From NCBI RefSeq assembly GCF_030655195.1, contig NZ_JAURWA010000123.1, positions 1-54,513 of the forward strand: a DNA stretch of 54,513 nt, read 5' to 3'. Source of the stretch: Patulibacter sp. GTDB lineage: Bacteria > Actinomycetota > Thermoleophilia > Solirubrobacterales > Solirubrobacteraceae. Positions within the stretch are counted from its first letter, which is position 1. Each line of letters starts with the position of its first letter. The notes under the pieces are model-generated. The model saw nothing but the letters and a program-made list of their open reading frames with translations, did not search any database and had not been told where the DNA came from. Both the position numbers and the translations under genes were made by a program. Positions 1,006-10,226 of this stretch are shown here, in pieces.

Positions 1006-2700
1006 CTACGCCTTGCCCATCAGGGCCCGCTCGATCAGGTCGATCGACGACTCGAGCTGCTCGACCGTCGCGTCCTGGACCCGGGTGATGCCGATCTGCT
1101 TGTTCACCCAGGCGTTGACCTCGCGCTGGGTGGCGCGACGGGTGCGGCCGAGCTCGCCGACGAGGCGGTGGCGGGTCTCACGCAGGCGCTGCCGCTGCTG
1201 CCAGAGCGGGACCTCGGTCGCCGCGAAGCCGCCCACGCCGCCGGCGTAGAACGCGTGGCCGCCCGGGCCCGCGCCGACCGGCTGGATCGGTGTGCCCGTC
1301 GTCGTCCCGGTGCTCATCCCCGTGCCCGTCGTGGACGCCTGCGGCTTCAGCGGCGTGGCGCCGCCGAAGAGGTCGAGCTGCGCCTCGGCCGCCATGTCGG
1401 CGTTCAGGGCCTTGAACTCGGCGACGAGGCCCAGTTCGTCCTCGGGCGTCTCCCCCGGCTCGTCGAGCAGCTGCTCGGGCGCGTCGGGATCGGCGTCCTC
1501 CTTGCGACGGAGGAACGGCACGAGCTCCTTGGCGATCTCGCCGGCGTGCGCGCGGAGCGTCGGCTCGGCGGGGATGTAGAGCCAGGAGCCCTCGATCGGG
1601 CGGTTCGGGATCGTCCGGACGAAGCGCCCGACGATCTGGCGGAAGATCATCGCCGTCTTCGACGCGGTGGCGTAGACGCCGACCCGCAGGCGCGGGATGT
1701 CGACGCCCTCGGAGACCATGTTGACCGCCACGATCCACGGGTCGGTGCTGTGGGTGAACGACTCGAGCTTCTGGTGGGCGGCCTGGTCCGTGTGCATGAC
1801 GACCACGGGGGGCGTGCCGGTGATGCGGTGGAGGGTCGCGGCGACCTTGCGGGCGTGCTCGCCGTCGGCGGCGACCACGAGACCGCCCGCCTCGGGGTGG
1901 GAGTCCGCGCGCAGGCGCGCCAGGCGCCCGTCGGCCTCGCGGAGGATCTTCGGCAGCGCGCCCTCGAGGTCGGTCGAGATCGCCGTCCGGTACCGGCGCG
2001 CCCGCTGGTCGCTCGAGACCGCGTCGGCGAACGACGCCTCGACCGTGTCGTCGCCGGACTGCCACGACATCGTGCCGTCGAACGGGATGAACGACACCGG
2101 CCGGCAGACGCCGTCGCGGACCGCGTCCGCGTAGCCGTAGGAGTAGTCGGGCTGGGTGACGCCGTCGGAGTCGTACTCGACGCCCGGGATCGCGGACTGG
2201 TCGGAGCGGAAGGGCGTCCCCGACAGCAGCAGCCACTGCCGTGCCCTGCCGAAGGCCAGGTCGAAGCCCTTGCCCCACGCCAGCTCCTCACCGAGGTGGT
2301 GGGCCTCGTCGGCGATGACGATCGTCGACTCGGTGCACTGCTGCGCGAACCGCTGCGCGGACTGGGCGACGCGGGCGTAGGTGACCGCGACGCCGTGGAA
2401 GCCGGCCGGCGGCGTCAGCTCGGGGGCGTCGGGGGCCAGGTGGACGCCCAGGCGGGCGGCGGCCTCGGCCCACTGACGGGTCAGCGGCGCGGTCGGGCAG
2501 ATCAGCGCGATGCGGTCCGCCTGGCGCGCGTAGAGCATGCGGACGGCCTGCTCCAGGGCGGGTCGGGTCTTGCCCGCGCCGGGTGCGGCGGCGATCAGGA
2601 AGACGCCGCGGTCCCACGCGGACATCTTCTCGAGGACCTCCTGCTGCCAGACGCGCAGGCCGGGGGGGATGGGGAGAGCGGTGCTCACGCGACCGACCAT
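1006..2700 (-). CDS. superfamily 2 DEAD/DEAH-box helicase
   Basis: A 564-residue SF2 ATPase. Walker A is APGAGKT at residues 39-45, the Walker B/DEAH box at 131-134, and motif III SGTPFRSD at 160-167. The C-terminal RecA-like lobe carries motif V (VSEGVDIP) and motif VI (QIVGRFVR). The N-terminal WQQEVLEKM resembles the Q-motif region of type III restriction-like translocases. After the helicase core, from about residue 420, comes an acidic linker, a Gly/Thr-rich stretch, and a basic helical tail (RLRETRHRLVGELGR) seen in stand-alone actinobacterial helicases of this type. Its nucleic-acid substrate is unknown. No methyltransferase or nuclease gene lies beside it, so a restriction role is not supported. 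Confidence 0.85.
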   Translation of the reverse strand: MVGRVSTALPIPPGLRVWQQEVLEKMSAWDRGVFLIAAAPGAGKTRPALEQAVRMLYARQADRIALICPTAPLTRQWAEAAARLGVHLAPDAPELTPPAGFHGVAVTYARVAQSAQRFAQQCTESTIVIADEAHHLGEELAWGKGFDLAFGRARQWLLLSGTPFRSDQSAIPGVEYDSDGVTQPDYSYGYADAVRDGVCRPVSFIPFDGTMSWQSGDDTVEASFADAVSSDQRARRYRTAISTDLEGALPKILREADGRLARLRADSHPEAGGLVVAADGEHARKVAATLHRITGTPPVVVMHTDQAAHQKLESFTHSTDPWIVAVNMVSEGVDIPRLRVGVYATASKTAMIFRQIVGRFVRTIPNRPIEGSWLYIPAEPTLRAHAGEIAKELVPFLRRKEDADPDAPEQLLDEPGETPEDELGLVAEFKALNADMAAEAQLDLFGGATPLKPQASTTGTGMSTGTTTGTPIQPVGAGPGGHAFYAGGVGGFAATEVPLWQQRQRLRETRHRLVGELGRTRRATQREVNAWVNKQIGITRVQDATVEQLESSIDLIERALMGKA

Positions 2701-2813: not shown

Positions 2814-3425
2814 ATGGGGTTCGCCATCGCCATCGTCGTCCTGGTCCTGATCGGCGTCGCCGTCGTGGTGGTGCTGCGCAACCGGTCCGCCGCCGAGGGC
2901 TCCGCGCTGCCCGCGCCGAAGGACCCGCTGGCCGACGCGACGGGCAGCCCGCTCGACGCGCTCGGGGTCGGCGCGGTCGTCTCCCACGGCGGCCACGACT
3001 ACGTCGTGCGCGGCCAGATCCGCTTCGACGAGGACGGCTACGTGTGGTCGGAGTACCACCTCGACGCCGGGCAGGACGTCCGCACCTGGCTGTCGGTCGA
3101 CCTCTCCGACGGGACCGACGTCGCGCTCTGGAACGCCGTGGAGGCCCCGGGCGGCCTGTCCCCCGACGGCGGCGCGGTGACCTTCGAGGGCCGCACCTAC
3201 AAGAAGGTCGAGTCCGGTAGCGCGACCTTCACGTCGACCGGCACGACGGGTCTGCCGGACTCCGGCAGGGCGCGGTACGCGGACTACAAGGCCGAGGGCG
3301 GCCGCCTGCTGTCGTTCGAGCAGTGGTCCGGCGACGGCTCCTGGGAGGTCTCCACCGGCTCGGCCGTCGGCACCCACCTGCTCGAGATCTACCCCGCCGG
3401 CACGGCCGCCGGGGGCGTGGCGTGA
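2814..3425 (+). CDS. DUF4178 membrane-anchored protein
   Basis: A 203-residue protein with one N-terminal membrane helix (residues 2-21, GFAIAIVVLVLIGVAVVVVL), then a DUF4178 domain of about 130 residues rich in beta strands, with repeated motifs such as YVVRGQIRF and WSEYHLD. The family has no established activity. In actinobacteria it is recurrently encoded beside DUF350 and spermidine-synthase-like genes, as here. The start is fixed by TATCGT at 2801-2806, 7 bases before the ATG. The stop overlaps the next gene's GTG in a GTGA junction, so it opens a translationally coupled operon running to 8010. A second DUF4178 gene lies at 9130-9810. Confidence 0.85.
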   Translation: MGFAIAIVVLVLIGVAVVVVLRNRSAAEGSALPAPKDPLADATGSPLDALGVGAVVSHGGHDYVVRGQIRFDEDGYVWSEYHLDAGQDVRTWLSVDLSDGTDVALWNAVEAPGGLSPDGGAVTFEGRTYKKVESGSATFTSTGTTGLPDSGRARYADYKAEGGRLLSFEQWSGDGSWEVSTGSAVGTHLLEIYPAGTAAGGVA

Positions 3426-3832
3426 GCGACGCCGCCCCGGCCGGGGGGCCCGCACCGAGCCCGCCCGGTGCCGAGGCGCTGGCCGCCGCGCAGCAGGCCC
3501 TGGACGCCGCCCGCGAGGCCGTCGGCGCCCTCGTCACCGTCCGCGCCAAGGCGCTGAAGGAGGGCGTCCGCCTGCGGGAGCGGGCCGAGGTCCCCGGCAT
3601 GGCGGGTCTCGGCGAGGACGCCGCCCTGCAGGAGCGTCGCGCCGAGGCCCTGGAGCCCCGCATCGAGCAGCTCCGCGACCTCGCCCGGCGGGCGGAGCTG
3701 GCCTACGAGGCGCTGCGCTCCGACCGGCCGGCCGATGGCCGCTCGACGGACGCACACCGGACCGCCGACGACCGTCCCTCCGGCGCGCCCGACGCCGCGA
3801 CCGGCGACGCCGACGAGCCCGAGGACCGCTGA
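3422..3832 (+). CDS. coiled-coil protein of the polyamine operon
   Basis: A 136-residue protein with no signal peptide or membrane segment. Residues 18-100 are Ala/Glu/Arg-rich with heptad-like spacing and should form one or two long helices. The tail (101-136) is disordered and rich in Asp, Arg and Pro. The GTG start overlaps the DUF4178 stop (GTGA). No family is recognised. Related clusters in other bacteria often include a PspA-type coiled-coil membrane-stress protein. This one could play that role, but no PspA signature is visible, so that is only a suggestion. Confidence 0.65.
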   Translation: MSDAAPAGGPAPSPPGAEALAAAQQALDAAREAVGALVTVRAKALKEGVRLRERAEVPGMAGLGEDAALQERRAEALEPRIEQLRDLARRAELAYEALRSDRPADGRSTDAHRTADDRPSGAPDAATGDADEPEDR

Positions 3833-3833
3833 C

Positions 3834-4493
3834 GTGCGCGCCCTGATCGACGTCCCCTTCCGCGACGCCGCCGCGACCGACCTGGCCTGGGCCCTGGAGC
3901 CCGACGCCGCGCCATCGGCGGGCCTGGCCCACGTCGACGTCGTCACGGGGGCGTTCGACCTGCGGCTGCACGTGCTCGGCGCGTCGCACGCGGTCGAGCT
4001 CCTGGTGCCCGGCGGGCGGCGCGTGACCGAGACGGTCGCCTGCGGCATCGCCGGGGGCGTCGCGCTGGACCGCGCCCCGGGGCGGATCGACGCGCACGGT
4101 CTGCGCTACGCGTTCTCCGCCGACGTCGAGACCGCCGGCACCGCCGCCGTGGTCGCGCTGGCGGACGAGCTGCACCGGACCCTGACCGAGGACCCCGCCG
4201 GCATCGTCGCGACCTTCCCGGGCGCGCCCGGCGCGGCGACCGGCCTGCGGGCGCACGCCACGGCGGACGGGGCGGCCTGGGACACCTGGCACCTCTACCC
4301 CGAGCGCGGCGAGGTCGTCCGGACCCGGTCGTCGGTCGCACTGCTGGGGCACCACGTCGCGGTGGATCCCGCCGGCACGCCGGGCACCCGGGCCGCCGGT
4401 CCGGCGCCGACCGGGGTCCCGGGGTCCGGCCACGCCGCTCCGCCGACGGTCGACGACCGTCCCCTCACGACCACCGGGGAGGCCCGTCGATGA
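3834..4493 (+). CDS. DUF2617 family protein
   Basis: A 219-residue soluble protein. It opens with a short strand and an N-terminal domain (FDLRLHVLGASHAVEL near residues 40-55), has a central segment VTETVACGI, and then a helical region ADELHRTL. A motif WDTWHLYPERGEVVRTRS near 165-182 is typical of DUF2617 proteins encoded in actinobacterial polyamine clusters. Its biochemical role is unknown. The GTG start lies one base after the previous stop. The last codons overlap the following ATG (ATGA). The final 40 residues are Pro/Ala-rich and probably flexible. Confidence 0.75.
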   Translation: MRALIDVPFRDAAATDLAWALEPDAAPSAGLAHVDVVTGAFDLRLHVLGASHAVELLVPGGRRVTETVACGIAGGVALDRAPGRIDAHGLRYAFSADVETAGTAAVVALADELHRTLTEDPAGIVATFPGAPGAATGLRAHATADGAAWDTWHLYPERGEVVRTRSSVALLGHHVAVDPAGTPGTRAAGPAPTGVPGSGHAAPPTVDDRPLTTTGEARR

Positions 4494-4927
4494 GCCTGCG
4501 CGGCAAGTCCACCGCCACGATCGTCGCCGGCGGCGCGCTGCTGGTGATCGCCCTGGTGCTGCTCGTGGGCGGTCTGTCCTCGTGCGGGTCCTCCCCGCGC
4601 TCGTGGGTCAAGGACCACTACACCTCGGCCGGCAAACGCGGCGGTGCCGACGTCTACCGGACCACCCAGAACGTCGCGAAGGTCACGAAGGACCTCACCG
4701 ACGCCTGGAAGCCCGCGGACCGGCTCACCGACCCCGGCGCCGTGTTCCTGCGCTACCGCGACGACCTGGTCGTCGTCCGGCCGCGCACGGGCGGGGGCAC
4801 CGAGATCGCGGTCGACGACGCCGACCGCGGCTACGCCAGCTCGTACCCGTACGTGGGCGGGTGGTTCGGCACGTACTCCGGCCGGGCCGAGGGCTTCCGC
4901 GGCGGCGGACCGGGGACGGGCAAGTGA
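4490..4927 (+). CDS. DUF4247 lipoprotein-like protein
   Basis: A 145-residue protein with an N-terminal hydrophobic segment (residues 9-29) ending at LSSCGSS. This could be a lipobox-like site with Cys32, though the preceding residues are not ideal. The body contains VKDHYTS, a run of basic and acidic residues, VFLRYRDDLVVV and an aromatic/Gly-rich C terminus (SYPYVGGWFGTYSGR), the DUF4247 pattern. It is expected to face the outside of the cell. GGAGG at 4478-4482 provides a ribosome site. It overlaps both neighbours (ATGA upstream, GTGA downstream), so it is translated with the operon. Function is unknown. Confidence 0.8.
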   Translation: MSLRGKSTATIVAGGALLVIALVLLVGGLSSCGSSPRSWVKDHYTSAGKRGGADVYRTTQNVAKVTKDLTDAWKPADRLTDPGAVFLRYRDDLVVVRPRTGGGTEIAVDDADRGYASSYPYVGGWFGTYSGRAEGFRGGGPGTGK

Positions 4928-5826
4928 GCGTCCGCCGTCGGACCGCCGTCCTCGCAGCGACGCTCGCGCTGCTCCCGACCGTCGGCATCGGGCAGGCCGG
5001 GGCCCAGTCGACGCTCTCGGACCCCCCGGAGTTCGGCCGGACCACGACCACGTCGGCCGCGCCACCGACGACCACCGGCACGACCTCGACGGCGCCGACC
5101 ACCACGCAGCCGACGATCACACGACCCGAGATCACGGCGGCCGAGGCCGGCGACGGCATCCTGCTGTCGGCCGAGGACCGCGTCGAGCTGGCCAACACCC
5201 TCGCGGAGGCCACGTCCGAGTCCGGCGTCTGCTTCGGGTACCAGGTCGACCTGGGCGGAACCGGGGCGTCGGACCGCAGCGAGACGCTCTCCGGCGGGGG
5301 GCCCGACAAGACGCCCGCCCCGTCGACGTGCCCGAAGGGCTCGGTCATGCTGCGGGTGGGCCTGACCTACACCAGCTCCTCCTCGGAGTCCGAGGACAGC
5401 GCGTCGTACTCCGTGAGCTCCACCGCACCCGGCACGCCGAGCAACCCGACGGCGGCCCTGAAGGACCTCACCGGCGTCGGCGACGACCAGCTCCTCGGGG
5501 ACGACGACGACCTCGCTCTGCGCAACCTCGCCGCCGCGCTGCCCCTGCTGCTCGACGACGCCGAGCCCGCCGAGCTCGCCGCACCGGCCGCGAAGGCCCC
5601 CAACGGCGACCGGCTGACCGGCTCTCCCGGCGGGGACTGGATCCGCGCGCACGGCATCGGCATCGGCATCGCGTTCGCCCTGCTCGTGCTCGCCGGCGTG
5701 CTCGTCGTCGGCGGCCTGATCGGCCGGCGCCAGGCCGGCCAGCCGAAGCGCCCCTCGCGGCGCACCCGTCCTTCGTCCTCGGGCTCCGGCTCCGACGGAC
5801 CCTCGTCCTCCACCACGACCACCTGA
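4924..5826 (+). CDS. secreted, membrane-anchored Thr-rich protein
   Basis: A 300-residue protein of unknown family. It has a signal peptide (residues 1-28, cleavage near AGAQ), a Thr/Pro/Ser-rich stalk (40-66), and an external domain (67-235) with two cysteines (C103, C136) that may pair. A single membrane helix (243-267) is followed by a basic RRQ...KRPSRR stretch and a Ser/Thr tail inside the cell. The topology is therefore type I: large domain outside, short tail inside. It lies in the middle of the polyamine operon with a GTGA overlap to DUF4247, so it may be the external sensor or scaffold of that module. That role is inference from position. Confidence 0.65.
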   Translation: MSVRRRTAVLAATLALLPTVGIGQAGAQSTLSDPPEFGRTTTTSAAPPTTTGTTSTAPTTTQPTITRPEITAAEAGDGILLSAEDRVELANTLAEATSESGVCFGYQVDLGGTGASDRSETLSGGGPDKTPAPSTCPKGSVMLRVGLTYTSSSSESEDSASYSVSSTAPGTPSNPTAALKDLTGVGDDQLLGDDDDLALRNLAAALPLLLDDAEPAELAAPAAKAPNGDRLTGSPGGDWIRAHGIGIGIAFALLVLAGVLVVGGLIGRRQAGQPKRPSRRTRPSSSGSGSDGPSSSTTTT

Positions 5827-5833
5827 GCCGGCC

Positions 5834-6268
5834 ATGAACGACACCCTGAACGACCTCCTCAACGGCCTGGGCAGCGCCGCCGCCTACTCCGTCGTCGGCC
5901 TGCTCGTGCTCGTCGCGGGCTTCGTCGCCGTCGACCTGGCCACGCCCGGCGACCTGCGCAAGCAGATCTGGACGGACCGCAACCGCGACCTCGTCGCCGT
6001 GCTCGCGTCCGGCCTGGCCGCCAACACGATGACCGTCGTCACGGCGATCCTGACCTCGGACGACGACCTCGGCAAGGGTCTCGTCGACGCACTCGGCTAC
6101 GGGCTGCTCGGCGTCGTCCTGATCGGCCTGGTCTTCAAGGTCGTCGACCTGCTCACCCCCGGGGACCTCGGCGAGATGGTCGCCCACGACGACCACCACC
6201 CGGCGGTCTGGATCACCGTCGTGACGCACCTGGCCGTCGGGGCCGTGGTCGCCGCGTCGATCTCGTGA
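5834..6268 (+). CDS. DUF350 integral membrane protein
   Basis: A 144-residue protein with four predicted membrane segments and an internal duplication. Each half ends a helix with the same motif, DLATPGDLRKQI near residue 35 and DLLTPGDLGEMV near 110. This two-fold repeat is characteristic of DUF350 (YjfL-type) proteins. DUF350 is commonly found beside PspA, DUF4178 and polyamine-synthase or glutathionylspermidine-synthase-like genes, as here. It starts 7 bases after the preceding stop, and its own stop overlaps the next GTG. No enzymatic residues are evident; a channel or scaffold role is possible but unproven. Confidence 0.85.
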   Translation: MNDTLNDLLNGLGSAAAYSVVGLLVLVAGFVAVDLATPGDLRKQIWTDRNRDLVAVLASGLAANTMTVVTAILTSDDDLGKGLVDALGYGLLGVVLIGLVFKVVDLLTPGDLGEMVAHDDHHPAVWITVVTHLAVGAVVAASIS

Positions 6269-8010
6269 CCGCGGACGGCGCCGCGGGCGCCGTCCCCCAC
6301 GGACGGCCGGAGCGGGACGCGGCGGCCGTCGGGCCGGATCCCGACGCGCCGTCCCCGTCGACCGACGCCGGGACGACCGGCCGCCCGGACGCCGCCGTGG
6401 ACGACCCGATGAACGGACCCGCCGCGGCACGCCCGATCCGCGCGCTCCTGCTGCTGGCCGCCGGCGCGTGCGCCGCGTGCGCGCTGGTCTACGAGCTGGC
6501 GCTGATCGCCCTGGGCGGCGTCCTCGTCGGCGCGACCGTCACGCAGACGTCGCTGGTCGTCTCGCTCTTCGTCTTCGCCCTCGGCCTGGGCGCGCTGGCC
6601 GCCAAGCCGCTCCTGAAGCGCCCGCTGCCCGCGTTCGTGGCGATCGAGGTCGGGGTCGCCGTCGCCGGCGGCTTCTCGGTGCTCGCCTGCTACGCCGCCT
6701 TCGCCTACGCCGGGGTCTACACGCCCGCCGTGGTCGTCGCGTCGCTGCTCGTCGGCGGGCTCGTCGGTGCCGAGCTGCCGATCCTCATGGAGCTGCTGCA
6801 GCGCATCCGCAAGCAGGCCGCCGCCCGGGCGCTCGCCGACCTGACCGCCGCGGACTACGTCGGCGCCCTCGTGGGCGGGCTCGCGTTCCCGTTCGTCCTG
6901 CTGCCGCTCTTCGGACAGATGCGCGGTGCCCTGGCCGCCGGCCTCGTCAACCTCGTCTGCGCCGCCCTGATCGTCTTCGTCGTCTTCCGCGGCGACCTGT
7001 CCCGGCGCCTCCGGGTCGGCTCCGCCGCCGTCCTGCTGGTCGGCGCGCTCGCCGTCGTCCTCGGGCTCGCCTACGCCGGGCGGTTCGAGGTCTCCGCCCG
7101 GCAGCAGCTCTACGACGACCCGATCGTCGTCTCGGAGCGCACGCCCTACCAGGAGATCGACCTCACCGAGAGCCTCACCGTGCGCGGGACGCCCGACGTA
7201 CGGCTGTACCTCAACGGCGACCTGCAGCTCTCCAGCCGCGACGAGTACCGGTACCACGAGGCCCTGGTCCACCCCGTCCTGGCGGCGACGAGCGCCGCGG
7301 CGCGTGGCCGGGGCCTGCGCGTCCTCGTGCTCGGCGGCGGCGACGGGATGGCGGTGCGCGAGGTGCTGCGCCGGCGCGACGTCGCGTCCGTCCACCTCGT
7401 CGACCTCGACCCGGCGATGACGCGGCTGGCCCGCACCGACCCGCGGCTGCGCTCCCTGAACCGCGGATCGCTCGACGACCGCCGCGTGCGGGTGACGAAC
7501 ACCGACGCGTTCAACTGGGTGCGCGACCACGAGCAGGACGCCACCGACGACCGCTACGACGCGGTGATCGTCGACTTCCCCGACCCCGACGACCAGGGCC
7601 TCGCGCGGCTCTACAGCGCCGAGCTCTACGGCATGGTCCGCACCCGCGTCCTCGCGCCCGGCGGCGTCGCCGTCGTGCAGTCCGGGTCGCCGTACTTCGC
7701 CCCGGACGCGTTCTGGTCCGTCGGCCGCACCCTGCAGCTCGGGGGCTGGCGCGCCCGGCCGTACCACGTCGACGTGCCGACGTTCGGCGACTGGGGCTTC
7801 TGGCTGGCGGGCCCCGCGGACGGCTCCCGTCCGGCGCCGGCCCTGACCGTCGGGAACCCCGCCGTCCCGGGGCTGCGCTTCCTCGACGAGGCCACCCTGC
7901 GCGCCGCCGCGACCTTCCCGGCCGACCGCGGCCCCCGCGACGTCCGGCCGACGACCCTGAACCGCCCGGCGATCCTGGACTACACGCGGCGCGGCTGGGC
8001 CGATTACTAG
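6265..8010 (+). CDS. membrane spermidine-synthase-like aminopropyltransferase
   Basis: A 581-residue fusion of about seven membrane helices (residues 57-270) and a cytosolic spermidine/spermine-synthase fold (280-581). The soluble half has DEYRYHEALVHPVL (326-339), the nucleotide-binding GGGDGMAVREVL (357-368), an acidic strand VHLVDLDP (376-383) and DFPDPDD (437-443), which places an Asp where the aminopropyl-transfer reaction needs one. Soluble SpeE lacks the membrane part. The substrate could be putrescine, spermidine or another amine. The GTG start overlaps the DUF350 stop; an in-frame ATG at 6409 would remove a Pro/Asp-rich lead of 48 residues. It ends the operon, followed by two strong hairpins. 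Confidence 0.85.
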   Translation: MTADGAAGAVPHGRPERDAAAVGPDPDAPSPSTDAGTTGRPDAAVDDPMNGPAAARPIRALLLLAAGACAACALVYELALIALGGVLVGATVTQTSLVVSLFVFALGLGALAAKPLLKRPLPAFVAIEVGVAVAGGFSVLACYAAFAYAGVYTPAVVVASLLVGGLVGAELPILMELLQRIRKQAAARALADLTAADYVGALVGGLAFPFVLLPLFGQMRGALAAGLVNLVCAALIVFVVFRGDLSRRLRVGSAAVLLVGALAVVLGLAYAGRFEVSARQQLYDDPIVVSERTPYQEIDLTESLTVRGTPDVRLYLNGDLQLSSRDEYRYHEALVHPVLAATSAAARGRGLRVLVLGGGDGMAVREVLRRRDVASVHLVDLDPAMTRLARTDPRLRSLNRGSLDDRRVRVTNTDAFNWVRDHEQDATDDRYDAVIVDFPDPDDQGLARLYSAELYGMVRTRVLAPGGVAVVQSGSPYFAPDAFWSVGRTLQLGGWRARPYHVDVPTFGDWGFWLAGPADGSRPAPALTVGNPAVPGLRFLDEATLRAAATFPADRGPRDVRPTTLNRPAILDYTRRGWADY

Positions 8011-8211: not shown

Positions 8212-9027
8212 CTAGGTCGGTCGGGCGCCCGGGAAGCGGGCGTGCAGCCACATGTCCCACCGGGGGCGCTCGGCCTGGGCGACCATCGCGCCGCCCGGCC
8301 CGAAGAGGTGGGCCTGGAGCAGGATCGCCGTCGACTGCCACGTGTGGACGGACAGCTCCACGAGACCCGGCGCCGGGGCCGTGGTGCGCACGAGGAGGTT
8401 CGTCGGCCCGACCTCCTCGACCGTCCCGGCCAGGAGCGGCGCGCCGGCCGCGCCGACGATCTGATCGCCCATCGTCGCGTCCTGCAGGCCCAGCGCCCCG
8501 AGCAGCGCCGTCCAGGCCTCGTCGCGGCCCGCCGACACGCTCCGCACGACGAACACCCCGCCCGCCGGCTGCCCCGGGAAGTGCTCGCGCGCCAGGACGA
8601 GGTTGCGCAGCCCGGCGGCCCAGCCCTCCTCGGTCCCCGCCACCGCCGCGCGGTAGCGGTCGCCCTCCACGGTCAGCCCGCTGGTCAGACGCACCCGGCA
8701 GGTGGCCTCGTCGACCGCCTCGACGACGACCTCGGTCCGCCACGGCGGGACGTCGGTCCCCCACTCGCGCTCCTCGTAGGCGAAGCGGTGCGGCTCGTCG
8801 TACGCGGTGACCGTGCCGTGGCTGTGGCCGAACGGCCCGTGGTCGGTGACCACCGCGCCGCCGACCCGTGCCTGCACGCTCGCGGGGACGAACCACGTGC
8901 TCAGGCCGGCCCCCGTGGCCACCGCCCACCAGACGTCCGAGGGCGTCCCCGGGACGACGGCGGGGACCCGGACGAGGGCGACGTCGGGGGCGTCGGGATG
9001 GTCGGCGAGGAGGGGCGGGTCGGTCAT
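8212..9027 (-). CDS. SRPBCC (START-like, AHSA1-type) domain protein
   Basis: A 271-residue cytosolic protein. The N-terminal half has the AHSA1/SRPBCC pattern: VPAVVPGTPSDVWWAVATGAGLSTWFVPA (residues 21-49), then GHSHGTVTAYDEPHRFAYEE and a strand/loop CRVRLTSGLTV. A long helix with EGWAAGLRNLV follows. Such domains form a hydrophobic cavity for small ligands. A second, less recognisable domain follows (ALLGALGLQD onward, ending WDMWLHARFPG). The start was set at the ATG at 9027 because the domain begins there and upstream residues resemble read-through of the divergent DUF4178 promoter region. No Shine-Dalgarno is obvious. Ligand unknown. Confidence 0.75.
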   Translation of the reverse strand: MTDPPLLADHPDAPDVALVRVPAVVPGTPSDVWWAVATGAGLSTWFVPASVQARVGGAVVTDHGPFGHSHGTVTAYDEPHRFAYEEREWGTDVPPWRTEVVVEAVDEATCRVRLTSGLTVEGDRYRAAVAGTEEGWAAGLRNLVLAREHFPGQPAGGVFVVRSVSAGRDEAWTALLGALGLQDATMGDQIVGAAGAPLLAGTVEEVGPTNLLVRTTAPAPGLVELSVHTWQSTAILLQAHLFGPGGAMVAQAERPRWDMWLHARFPGARPT

Positions 9028-9129: not shown

Positions 9130-9810
9130 GTGCTGCTCGCGATCGTCATGGGCATCCTCGCGATCGCGTCGCTCGTCGCGTTCGTCGTGCCCCTCCGGAT
9201 CGCGATGCGCCACGAGGACGGGCCGCGGACGGTCGGCGGCGGCGTCGCGCCCGGGACCACCGAGTTCGTCGGGCTCTCCCACCTCGAGGTCGGGGTCGAG
9301 CTGAAGTTCGACCGCCAGACGTGGTTCGTCTGCGGCGTCCAGCACGTCACCGCCCCGGACGGGGCGACCTGGTCGGCCTGGCACCTCGACGACCGCGGTC
9401 AGGGCGGCTGGATGGCGACCGGCGGGCCGGACGAGGACGTCGTCTTCGCGGTCCGTGCAGAGAGTCCGGAGACGATCGATCCCGCGCTCGACGCGGTCAC
9501 GTGGCGCAAGCACGAGTGGGCGCGCACCACGGTCGACGGCGGGACGGTCCGGGCCGAGGGCGAGCGACGCCTGGCCCGCCGGGGCGGCATGGCCCCCGTG
9601 GCCCCGACCGACCTCGAGCGGGTGGTCTTCGCCCGACCGGACCTGCCGGCGCGGCGCCTCGTGCTCGAGCGCTCGGCCGGCGACGAGACCTGGAACGCGT
9701 GGATCGGCACCGCCGTGCCCGGCAGCATGATCGACGTCTGGCCGCCCGCCGGCGCGCTCGCGGCGCCCGCGGGCCCTGGGACGGCCGCGGCGCCCGCGCC
9801 CGGCGCCTAG
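9130..9810 (+). CDS. second DUF4178 membrane-anchored protein
   Basis: A 226-residue paralogue of the protein at 2814-3425. It has one N-terminal helix (roughly residues 2-24, VFVVPLRI-type end) followed by a beta-rich DUF4178 domain (GVELKFDRQTWFVCGV, then WSAWHLDD). The C-terminal domain pattern ERLVLERSAGDETWNAW is shared with the first copy (LLSFEQWSGDGSWE). It stands alone, outside the polyamine operon and beyond a convergent gene. Its stop (9808-9810) overlaps the RidA stop on the other strand by three bases, so the two genes share 3' ends. The Ala/Pro-rich last 20 residues are probably disordered. Confidence 0.8.
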   Translation: MLLAIVMGILAIASLVAFVVPLRIAMRHEDGPRTVGGGVAPGTTEFVGLSHLEVGVELKFDRQTWFVCGVQHVTAPDGATWSAWHLDDRGQGGWMATGGPDEDVVFAVRAESPETIDPALDAVTWRKHEWARTTVDGGTVRAEGERRLARRGGMAPVAPTDLERVVFARPDLPARRLVLERSAGDETWNAWIGTAVPGSMIDVWPPAGALAAPAGPGTAAAPAPGA

Positions 9811-10226
9811 CCCTCGTAGACCGCCCCGGCGCCCACGATCGCCTCGACCTCGATCTCGACCTTCAGGCGCGGGTCGACGAGCGCCGAGACGCCGAGGGTG
9901 GAGATCGTCGGGCGGGCACCGCGGAGGGCCTCGCCGTACGCGCTGAGCACCGGGCCGCCGTTGACGGGCAGGTCGACGACGAACACGCGCGTGCGGATGA
10001 CGTCGCGCAGCTCCGACCCGGCCTGCTCCAGCGCGTGCTCGATGGTCTCCAGCGCGAGCCGGGCCTGCTCGCCGGCATCCTCGGGGATCGGATCGTCGCC
10101 GCGCGCGGCCGTGGTGCCGGAGACCAGGACGCGGTCACCGACGCGGATCGCGCGGGAGTAGCCCACCTCGGTCTCCCACGGTCCGCCGGAGTGGAAGCGC
10201 TGGACGCGGTCCTGGTCGCGGCTCAT
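9807..10226 (-). CDS. RidA (YjgF/YER057c/UK114) family protein
   Basis: A 139-residue protein of the usual RidA length. RidA enzymes hydrolyse reactive imine/enamine intermediates released by PLP enzymes and form trimers. The expected C-terminal pattern is present: TRVFVVDL (with the carboxylate-binding Arg) and KVEIEVEAIV (with the acidic residue near the C terminus). GDRVLVSGTTA corresponds to the first core strand. TAACCT at 10234-10239 lies 7 bases before the ATG, a leaderless-type start. A more distant relative lies at 54058-54468. No amino-acid pathway gene is adjacent, so the substrate is not inferred. Confidence 0.88.
   Translation of the reverse strand: MSRDQDRVQRFHSGGPWETEVGYSRAIRVGDRVLVSGTTAARGDDPIPEDAGEQARLALETIEHALEQAGSELRDVIRTRVFVVDLPVNGGPVLSAYGEALRGARPTISTLGVSALVDPRLKVEIEVEAIVGAGAVYEG

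What the first reader, a model, noticed from the sequence alone, without database searches (positions are those of the whole stretch)
2814..8010. Tightly coupled membrane-polyamine operon of mostly unknown proteins
Seven genes joined by ATGA/GTGA overlaps or gaps under 8 bases: DUF4178, coiled-coil, DUF2617, DUF4247, a signal-peptide/stalk/TM protein, DUF350 and a seven-helix aminopropyltransferase. Five have a membrane or export signal. DUF350, DUF4178 and spermidine-synthase genes co-occur in many actinobacteria without a known function. Such coupling suggests a complex at the membrane that makes, senses or delivers a polyamine. The stalk protein and the coiled-coil protein appear to be the lineage-specific additions. 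This is the strongest candidate here for an undescribed system.
Basis: partly seen in the sequence, partly recalled or inferred. Interest (0 to 1): 0.74.

Follow-up and report, generated by a model that had tools for sequence, protein, structure and literature searches.

The report
Membrane aminopropyltransferase operon with exported stalk
A real, conserved seven-gene operon in a Patulibacter-like bacterium: its core is largely described already, but it carries an unnamed exported protein, and its enzyme, which looks like a polyamine maker, sits in genomes where the enzyme that supplies its usual raw material is mostly not found, so it probably does something else.

Summary
The seven coupled genes are real and recur in the same order in 12 loci (window, nine genomes of its family, a Thermoleophilaceae MAG, an Acidimicrobiia MAG). 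The core is not undescribed: a 2024 mSystems paper reports DUF350, DUF4178 and a 7TM-fused spermidine-synthase gene in one operon type and DUF4247 with DUF2617 in a related variant. Two things go beyond the passages I read. First, the 'stalk' has no Pfam family. A search with it alone gave six further genomes, and in all six it sits in this operon, four of them Actinophytocola. AlphaFold gives a confident exported alpha-beta4-alpha domain without a solved match at E<=0.001. Second, 'makes a polyamine' is weak: AdoMetDC (PF02675), the source of decarboxylated SAM, is undetected in 25 of 29 genomes with the fused enzyme. In one phylum sample it is present in 3 of 14 such genomes against 11 of 12 whose SpeE match covers only the catalytic part. 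GGGDG and DxxDP motifs are nevertheless kept in most copies. Best reading: a membrane SpeE-fold transferase module acting on a non-putrescine, envelope-linked acceptor, donor unsettled. New variant of a known kind; function untested.

The parts
2814..3425 (+). DUF4178 protein, 203 aa; N-terminal hydrophobic helix, then the DUF4178 domain (inside the cell by my reading of the basic residues after the helix)
   Evidence: PF13785 114 bits; hydrophobic segment 1-27
   Evidence: same position in 9 other loci of the family
3834..4493 (+). DUF2617 protein, 219 aa; invariant H52, E66, H153 and FPG and WxTxHxYP motifs among 22 aligned; AlphaFold beta-rich domain
   Evidence: PF10936 125 bits; alignment; model mean pLDDT 86
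4490..4927 (+). DUF4247 protein, 145 aa; N-terminal hydrophobic segment ending in lipobox-like LSSC, so possible surface lipoprotein (some orthologues lack it)
   Evidence: PF14042 78 bits; N-termini
4924..5826 (+). 'stalk' protein, 300 aa: signal peptide and Thr-rich linker (my reading), ectodomain about 72-210 with C103 and C136 invariant among 11, hydrophobic TM 239-269, basic tail; no Pfam family
5834..6268 (+). DUF350 (YjfL-type) integral membrane protein, 144 aa
   Evidence: PF03994 84 bits; hydrophobic segments
6265..8010 (+). membrane-fused spermidine-synthase-like protein, 581 aa (alternative start 6409)
   Evidence: PRK03612 616 bits; GGGDG and DxxDP motifs
9130..9810 (+). second, divergent DUF4178 protein with an N-terminal hydrophobic helix; a downstream copy is also seen in 5 of 6 other same-genus loci; associated, not certainly part
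   Evidence: PF13785 20.3 bits, below the cut-off of 25; iterated operon HMM E 8.7e-59

Best explanation
The operon encodes a membrane-embedded SpeE-fold transferase module whose job is probably not to make free spermidine. Inferred working: the fused SpeE (membrane helices plus cytosolic catalytic domain) and DUF350 form the membrane core. DUF4178, DUF2617 and the coil act at its inner face. The DUF4247 lipoprotein and the stalk ectodomain act on the outer face, sensing, holding or presenting an envelope-linked acceptor. The enzyme transfers an aminopropyl-type group to an amine acceptor other than putrescine, to tune the envelope. Shown here: gene content, order, linkage, topology signals, active-site motifs kept in most copies, AdoMetDC undetected in most carriers. 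Inferred: the complex, the acceptor, the direction and the purpose.
For: Linkage: in 198 phylum genomes all DUF2617 over cut-off (13 genomes) and all DUF4247 (8 genomes) are near a fused SpeE. The stalk, searched alone, gave 6 new genomes and 6 of 6 have it in this operon. Topology signals in five proteins. Active site: of 25 aligned copies (24 fused, 1 soluble), 24 keep GGGDG and 23 keep DxxDP. Donor problem: AdoMetDC undetected in 25 of 29 fused-SpeE genomes; 3 of 14 against 11 of 12, Fisher p 4.8e-4, not corrected for relatedness. Within one genus, G325 has the operon and no AdoMetDC, while G324 has a soluble SpeE with GSP_synth genes and DUF350 and does have AdoMetDC.
Against: I found no biochemistry for the actinobacterial proteins. 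AdoMetDC is found in 4 of 29 fused-SpeE genomes. It could be too divergent for PF02675 or missing from drafts, and the PF01536 search rang nowhere, controls included. A review (passages read) says small amounts of spermidine and spermine are found in Streptomyces coelicolor; another paper (passage read) says spermine biosynthesis is reported in Streptomyces and Mycobacterium and names the mycobacterial orthologue a spermidine synthase. The tyrosine of the TPYQE motif is missing in 9 of 25 copies (8 of the 24 fused). In 7 of 8 places in genus g39 (Streptomyces by my inference from genome size) only DUF2617 and the fused SpeE are found, so the other partners are dispensable there.
Confidence: 0.42

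Rival explanations
1. It is an ordinary polyamine synthase placed at the membrane: the fused enzyme aminopropylates putrescine or agmatine with decarboxylated SAM made by an AdoMetDC that the family model misses or that a non-homologous enzyme provides.
For: PRK03612 equivalog named polyamine aminopropyltransferase, 616 bits; the domain aligns with solved aminopropyltransferases; spermidine and spermine are reported in Streptomyces (passages).
Against: AdoMetDC undetected in 25 of 29 carriers, while the same search finds it in 23 of 198 phylum genomes, including 11 of 12 with a catalytic-part-only SpeE match, 10 of these 11 within about 0.2 kb of that SpeE. In the three fused-SpeE genomes whose AdoMetDC surroundings I fetched, no SpeE-profile hit lies within about 6 kb of it.
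Confidence: 0.22
2. The enzyme uses SAM itself and transfers a 3-amino-3-carboxypropyl group to a membrane or envelope acceptor.
For: Explains kept SpeE motifs together with undetected AdoMetDC. Such SAM chemistry exists elsewhere (nicotianamine synthase, microcin C; recalled, from no call).
Against: No test of the donor pocket was made; GGGDG is described as part of the decarboxylated-SAM binding region (PMC11107197, passage read). A text search for the two terms together gave two papers, neither opened.
Confidence: 0.15
3. The fused SpeE is mainly a sensor: it binds a SAM-related metabolite or a polyamine and reports to a membrane-stress response, as proposed for PspA-linked relatives.
For: Related operons couple with PspA and CesT/Tir, and the authors suggest monitoring of polyamines (mSystems 2024); exported partners could sense the surface.
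Against: Catalytic motifs are kept in most copies; none of the seven proteins matches a PspA or regulator model in Pfam.
Confidence: 0.13
4. It is a phage-defence module.
For: A 54-bit PADLOC match of the SpeE Rossmann region to mad2; a ResIII/DEAD helicase gene is read divergently upstream, not assessed for defence.
Against: Six of seven proteins match no PADLOC model and none matches a PHROG, at E<=0.01. Mobile genes around the operon were not surveyed.
Confidence: 0.02

Closest known systems
DUF350 operon variant with DUF4247 and DUF2617 (mSystems 2024, PMC11237479; examples CCP45394.1 and CCP45395.1, which I recall as M. tuberculosis accessions)
   Same: DUF350, DUF4247 and DUF2617 together; the text treats DUF4247 as secreted or lipoprotein and DUF2617 as a predicted beta-sandwich enzyme with conserved histidines (passages).
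   Different: As I read the passage, those operons also encode AdoMetDC and a polyamine oxidase; here AdoMetDC is undetected in the genome. Stalk and coil are not in the passages read; 'stalk' and 'Patulibacter' do not occur in the main text.
CesT/Tir-PspA operon with 7TM-fused spermidine synthase, DUF350 and DUF4178 (same paper)
   Same: Spermidine-synthase domain with N-terminal 7TM, DUF350, DUF4178 and a lipoprotein.
   Different: None of the seven proteins here matches PspA or CesT/Tir in Pfam; DUF2617, DUF4247, stalk and coil instead.
MFS-SpdSyn fusion with DUF350 (Biochem J 2019, BCJ20190561; not held, content recalled)
   Same: Membrane-fused SpdSyn-like protein clustered with DUF350. 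Recalled: the fusion did not replace E. coli spermidine synthase.
   Different: Recalled: those genomes carry AdoMetDC; here it is mostly undetected. NF037959 (fused MFS/SpdSyn) scores only 21.6 bits, cut-off 40.
Soluble spermidine synthase SpeE with AdoMetDC next door
   Same: Catalytic domain and motifs.
   Different: Membrane helices, operon partners, and no AdoMetDC neighbour.

Membership tests
PRK03612 membrane polyamine aminopropyltransferase | NCBIfam NF002956 score over curated cut-off | tested here: met
   616 bits, cut-off 472
PRK03612 membrane polyamine aminopropyltransferase | aminopropyltransferase active-site motifs (GGGDG, DxxDP) in the window protein | tested here: met
   both present in the window protein; over 25 aligned copies 24 keep GGGDG and 23 keep DxxDP
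functional polyamine (spermidine) synthase | partner AdoMetDC in the genome | tested here: not met
   0 matches in own genome, 94.9% complete draft; undetected in 25 of 29 carriers
functional polyamine (spermidine) synthase | makes spermidine from putrescine and decarboxylated SAM | not testable with these tools
   needs enzyme assay
DUF4247/DUF2617 operon variant of mSystems 2024 | DUF2617 and DUF4247 beside DUF350 | tested here: met
DUF4247/DUF2617 operon variant of mSystems 2024 | AdoMet decarboxylase gene in the operon (as I read the passage) | tested here: not met
   no PF02675 match in own genome
TPM-domain exported protein (considered for the stalk) | match to TPM sequence models or solved folds | tested here: not met
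   no TPM among the 20 Pfam families listed for 11 members; no PDB fold match at E<=0.001
anti-phage defence system | match to defence family models | tested here: not met
   six of seven proteins none, SpeE a Rossmann-region match to mad2

The most novel reading that the evidence does not exclude
An envelope-modification machine found in actinobacteria: a membrane-embedded SpeE-fold enzyme that no longer depends on decarboxylated SAM (using SAM directly or an unknown donor) to modify a membrane- or wall-linked acceptor, with the stalk family as its dedicated outer-face partner.
Probability: 0.2. Interest if true: 0.78.

Novelty: new variant of a known kind. Interest (0 to 1): 0.46.

Why it matters
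The membrane-fused SpeE family is named a polyamine aminopropyltransferase in NCBIfam, and its mycobacterial member is called a spermidine synthase in print. If such enzymes work without decarboxylated SAM, many polyamine annotations are wrong and a class of envelope chemistry is unnamed. The stalk family gives a specific, operon-bound handle on the outside of the cell, and carriers without detectable AdoMetDC give a clean test of the donor.

Tried and rejected
TPM-like domain for the stalk (my first guess): no Pfam or PDB fold support; the best Foldseek matches were non-significant sterol-carrier-protein hits at E 0.3. PDB sequence search with the stalk profile: only three weak hits, E 0.14 or worse. 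Relatedness among the operon's own families (DUF4178, coil, DUF2617, DUF4247, stalk, DUF350): profile-profile probabilities all under 9%, over at most 29 columns. DUF2617 fold: good model, best PDB hit E 0.024 with low probability, none at E<=0.001; no PDB sequence match. Eukaryote-type AdoMetDC PF01536 in 23 genomes: nothing rang anywhere, so uninformative. Phage defence: only a Rossmann-region match. A weak stalk hit in G139 (20.6 bits, last part of the profile only) was set aside as chance. Of the 36 of 198 genomes with a SpeE-like hit at E<=1e-20 I compared 14 fused over cut-off with 12 that match only the catalytic part of the profile. The other 10 are weaker hits over a longer range, 5 of them with AdoMetDC, and are outside the 2x2 test; 4 further AdoMetDC genomes have no SpeE-like hit at that threshold. 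'Soluble' for the 12 rests on the match range, not on a membrane prediction. PF02675 does not prove activity: some homologues are arginine or ornithine decarboxylases (PMC10407285, abstract and passages).
Full report
WHAT IS THERE. The window holds seven + strand genes between 2814 and 8010. Four of the six junctions are 4-base overlaps, one is a 1-base gap and one a 7-base gap; in order -4, +1, -4, -4, +7, -4. Pfam names five: DUF4178, DUF2617, DUF4247, DUF350 and Spermine_synth; the coil and the stalk have no family over cut-off. The last protein is over the curated cut-off of NCBIfam PRK03612 (616 bits against 472). A hydrophobicity scan marks DUF4178, DUF4247, the stalk (its C-terminal helix; the N-terminal signal peptide is my reading), DUF350 and SpeE, and finds nothing in the coil or DUF2617. 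DUF4247 orthologues end their hydrophobic N-terminus in lipobox-like LSSC, LASC, LTAC, LSGC or LTGC in several loci, but not in all.

WHERE ELSE. PRK03612 over cut-off occurs in 14 of 198 phylum genomes and 11 of 146 genomes of the same family. I fetched the surroundings of 23 such places outside the window, and of one below cut-off, G324, and searched them with profiles grown from the window proteins. All seven genes in the same order occur in the window and 9 further genomes of the family (G121, G215, G308, G316-G319, G321, G325); in G322 the contig ends inside the stalk. Other lineages keep shorter forms: DUF4178-DUF2617-DUF4247-DUF350-SpeE in three loci, DUF2617-DUF4247-DUF350-SpeE in two, DUF4178-DUF4247-DUF350-SpeE in one, and only DUF2617-SpeE in seven. 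In the 198 genomes, DUF2617 over cut-off is in 13 and DUF4247 in 8, and in each of these it lies within about 2.1 kb of a fused SpeE; one DUF2617 hit below cut-off (G144) has no fused SpeE.

THE STALK FAMILY. A search of genome contigs with the stalk alignment alone returned 13 loci. Six are new: four Actinophytocola, a Thermoleophilaceae MAG and an Acidimicrobiia MAG. In 6 of 6 the stalk is between DUF4247 and DUF350, followed by the fused SpeE. The two MAG loci have all seven genes (the DUF4178 of one is cut by the contig start, the coil of the other matches weakly, 38.9 bits), which makes 12 loci with the full set. The four Actinophytocola loci show no coil. A. xanthii has two stalk genes in tandem. 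In the 198-genome sample only the window's genome and G121 have a strong stalk match, so 2 of 14 fused-SpeE genomes there. Among 11 aligned members, C103 and C136 are invariant, and an extra pair of cysteines (positions 151 and 154 of the window protein) is present together in 3 and absent together in 8, as expected of disulphides in an exported domain. AlphaFold gives residues about 72-210 at pLDDT mostly above 90, one helix, four strands and further helices, and a separate C-terminal helix. Foldseek finds no PDB match at E<=0.001; the best Pfam E-value over the 11 members is 0.0048, in one member only.

THE DONOR PROBLEM. A spermidine synthase uses decarboxylated SAM from AdoMetDC; the literature calls spermidine synthase the obligatory partner of AdoMetDC (PMC10407285, abstract and passages). 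PF02675 finds no AdoMetDC in the window's genome, 94.9% complete. Four of the 25 are single-contig assemblies (G074, G121, G150, G318). The search itself works in this phylum: 23 of 198 genomes have a match. Of the 36 genomes with a SpeE-like hit at E<=1e-20, 14 are fused over cut-off (3 with AdoMetDC), 12 match only the catalytic part (11 with AdoMetDC, in 10 of these within about 0.2 kb of the SpeE; the twelfth genome is 62% complete), and 10 are weaker longer matches (5 with AdoMetDC; left out). Fisher p for 3/14 against 11/12 is 4.8e-4, not corrected for shared ancestry. In one genus the contrast is direct: G325 has the seven-gene operon and no AdoMetDC match; G324 has a soluble SpeE, two GSP_synth genes, an FAD oxidoreductase and DUF350 in one region, and has AdoMetDC elsewhere. 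Around the AdoMetDC of the three fused-SpeE genomes whose surroundings I fetched, about 12 kb each, no operon profile hits. Yet the enzyme is mostly not a wreck: of 25 aligned copies (24 fused, 1 soluble) 24 keep GGGDG and 23 keep DxxDP, with one clearly degenerate copy; the tyrosine of the TPYQE motif, however, is missing in 9 of 25. The catalytic domain aligns with solved aminopropyltransferases.

HOW IT MOST LIKELY WORKS. I commit to a membrane-embedded transferase module acting on an acceptor other than putrescine, at about 0.4. Shown: content, order, linkage, topology signals, motif conservation, AdoMetDC undetected in most carriers. Inferred: one complex, inner-face roles for DUF4178, DUF2617 and the coil, outer-face roles for DUF4247 and the stalk, and a group transferred to an envelope-linked amine. 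The mSystems authors likewise speak of monitoring polyamines or aminopropylation of other substrates. From recall only (the paper is not held), the Biochem J 2019 study found that MFS-fused SpdSyn proteins linked to DUF350 did not replace E. coli spermidine synthase. Against my reading stand the reported spermidine and spermine in Streptomyces coelicolor (review passage), the statement that spermine biosynthesis is reported in Streptomyces and Mycobacterium and the naming of the mycobacterial orthologue as spermidine synthase (passage), the 4 of 29 carriers with AdoMetDC, and the chance of an AdoMetDC too divergent for the model; the PF01536 search was uninformative.

KNOWN OR NEW. The parts of the core are known from comparative genomics. 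That the stalk family and the AdoMetDC contrast are not in that paper rests on word searches of its main text only; its supplements could not be read here. Text searches for the DUF names, the M. tuberculosis locus names that I recalled, and fused-enzyme or AdoMetDC terms showed no functional study of this operon among the titles listed; two searches listed only 25 of 75 and 15 of 36 papers. I file it as a new variant of a known kind. It fails one feature of the published variant (AdoMetDC in the operon, as I read the passage) and one feature of a working spermidine synthase (AdoMetDC in the genome), so I do not file the enzyme as a spermidine synthase.

Noticed in passing
window 9130-9810 +: A second, divergent DUF4178 protein downstream of the operon; a downstream copy is seen in 5 of 6 other same-genus loci, once only 72 nt after SpeE (L060).
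   Followed up: partly
window 8212-8898 -: AHSA1/SRPBCC-type protein on the opposite strand between SpeE and the second DUF4178 (Pfam 22.8 bits, just over the cut-off of 22.1).
   Followed up: no
window 9807-10226 -: RidA-type (Ribonuc_L-PSP, 76.5 bits) gene whose end overlaps the end of the second DUF4178 by 4 bases on the opposite strand.
   Followed up: no
window 1006-2700 -: ResIII/DEAD helicase read divergently from the operon, leaving about 110 bases between them.
   Followed up: no
L076 9887-11694: Two stalk genes in tandem in Actinophytocola xanthii.
   Followed up: partly
L064 (G324): DUF350, two glutathionylspermidine-synthase-like genes, an FAD oxidoreductase and a soluble SpeE in one region, in the same genus as an operon carrier without an AdoMetDC match.
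   Followed up: partly
stalk genes of L055, L059 and L063: In these 3 of 11 stalk proteins a CxxC pair stands where the others have serines in the TYTSxSSESED segment, both cysteines together.
   Followed up: no
L054 (G171) 3899-5401 -: The lowest-scoring fused SpeE over cut-off (473.9 bits, cut-off 472); probably the degenerate copy in the motif table, though I did not check the assignment row by row.
   Followed up: no
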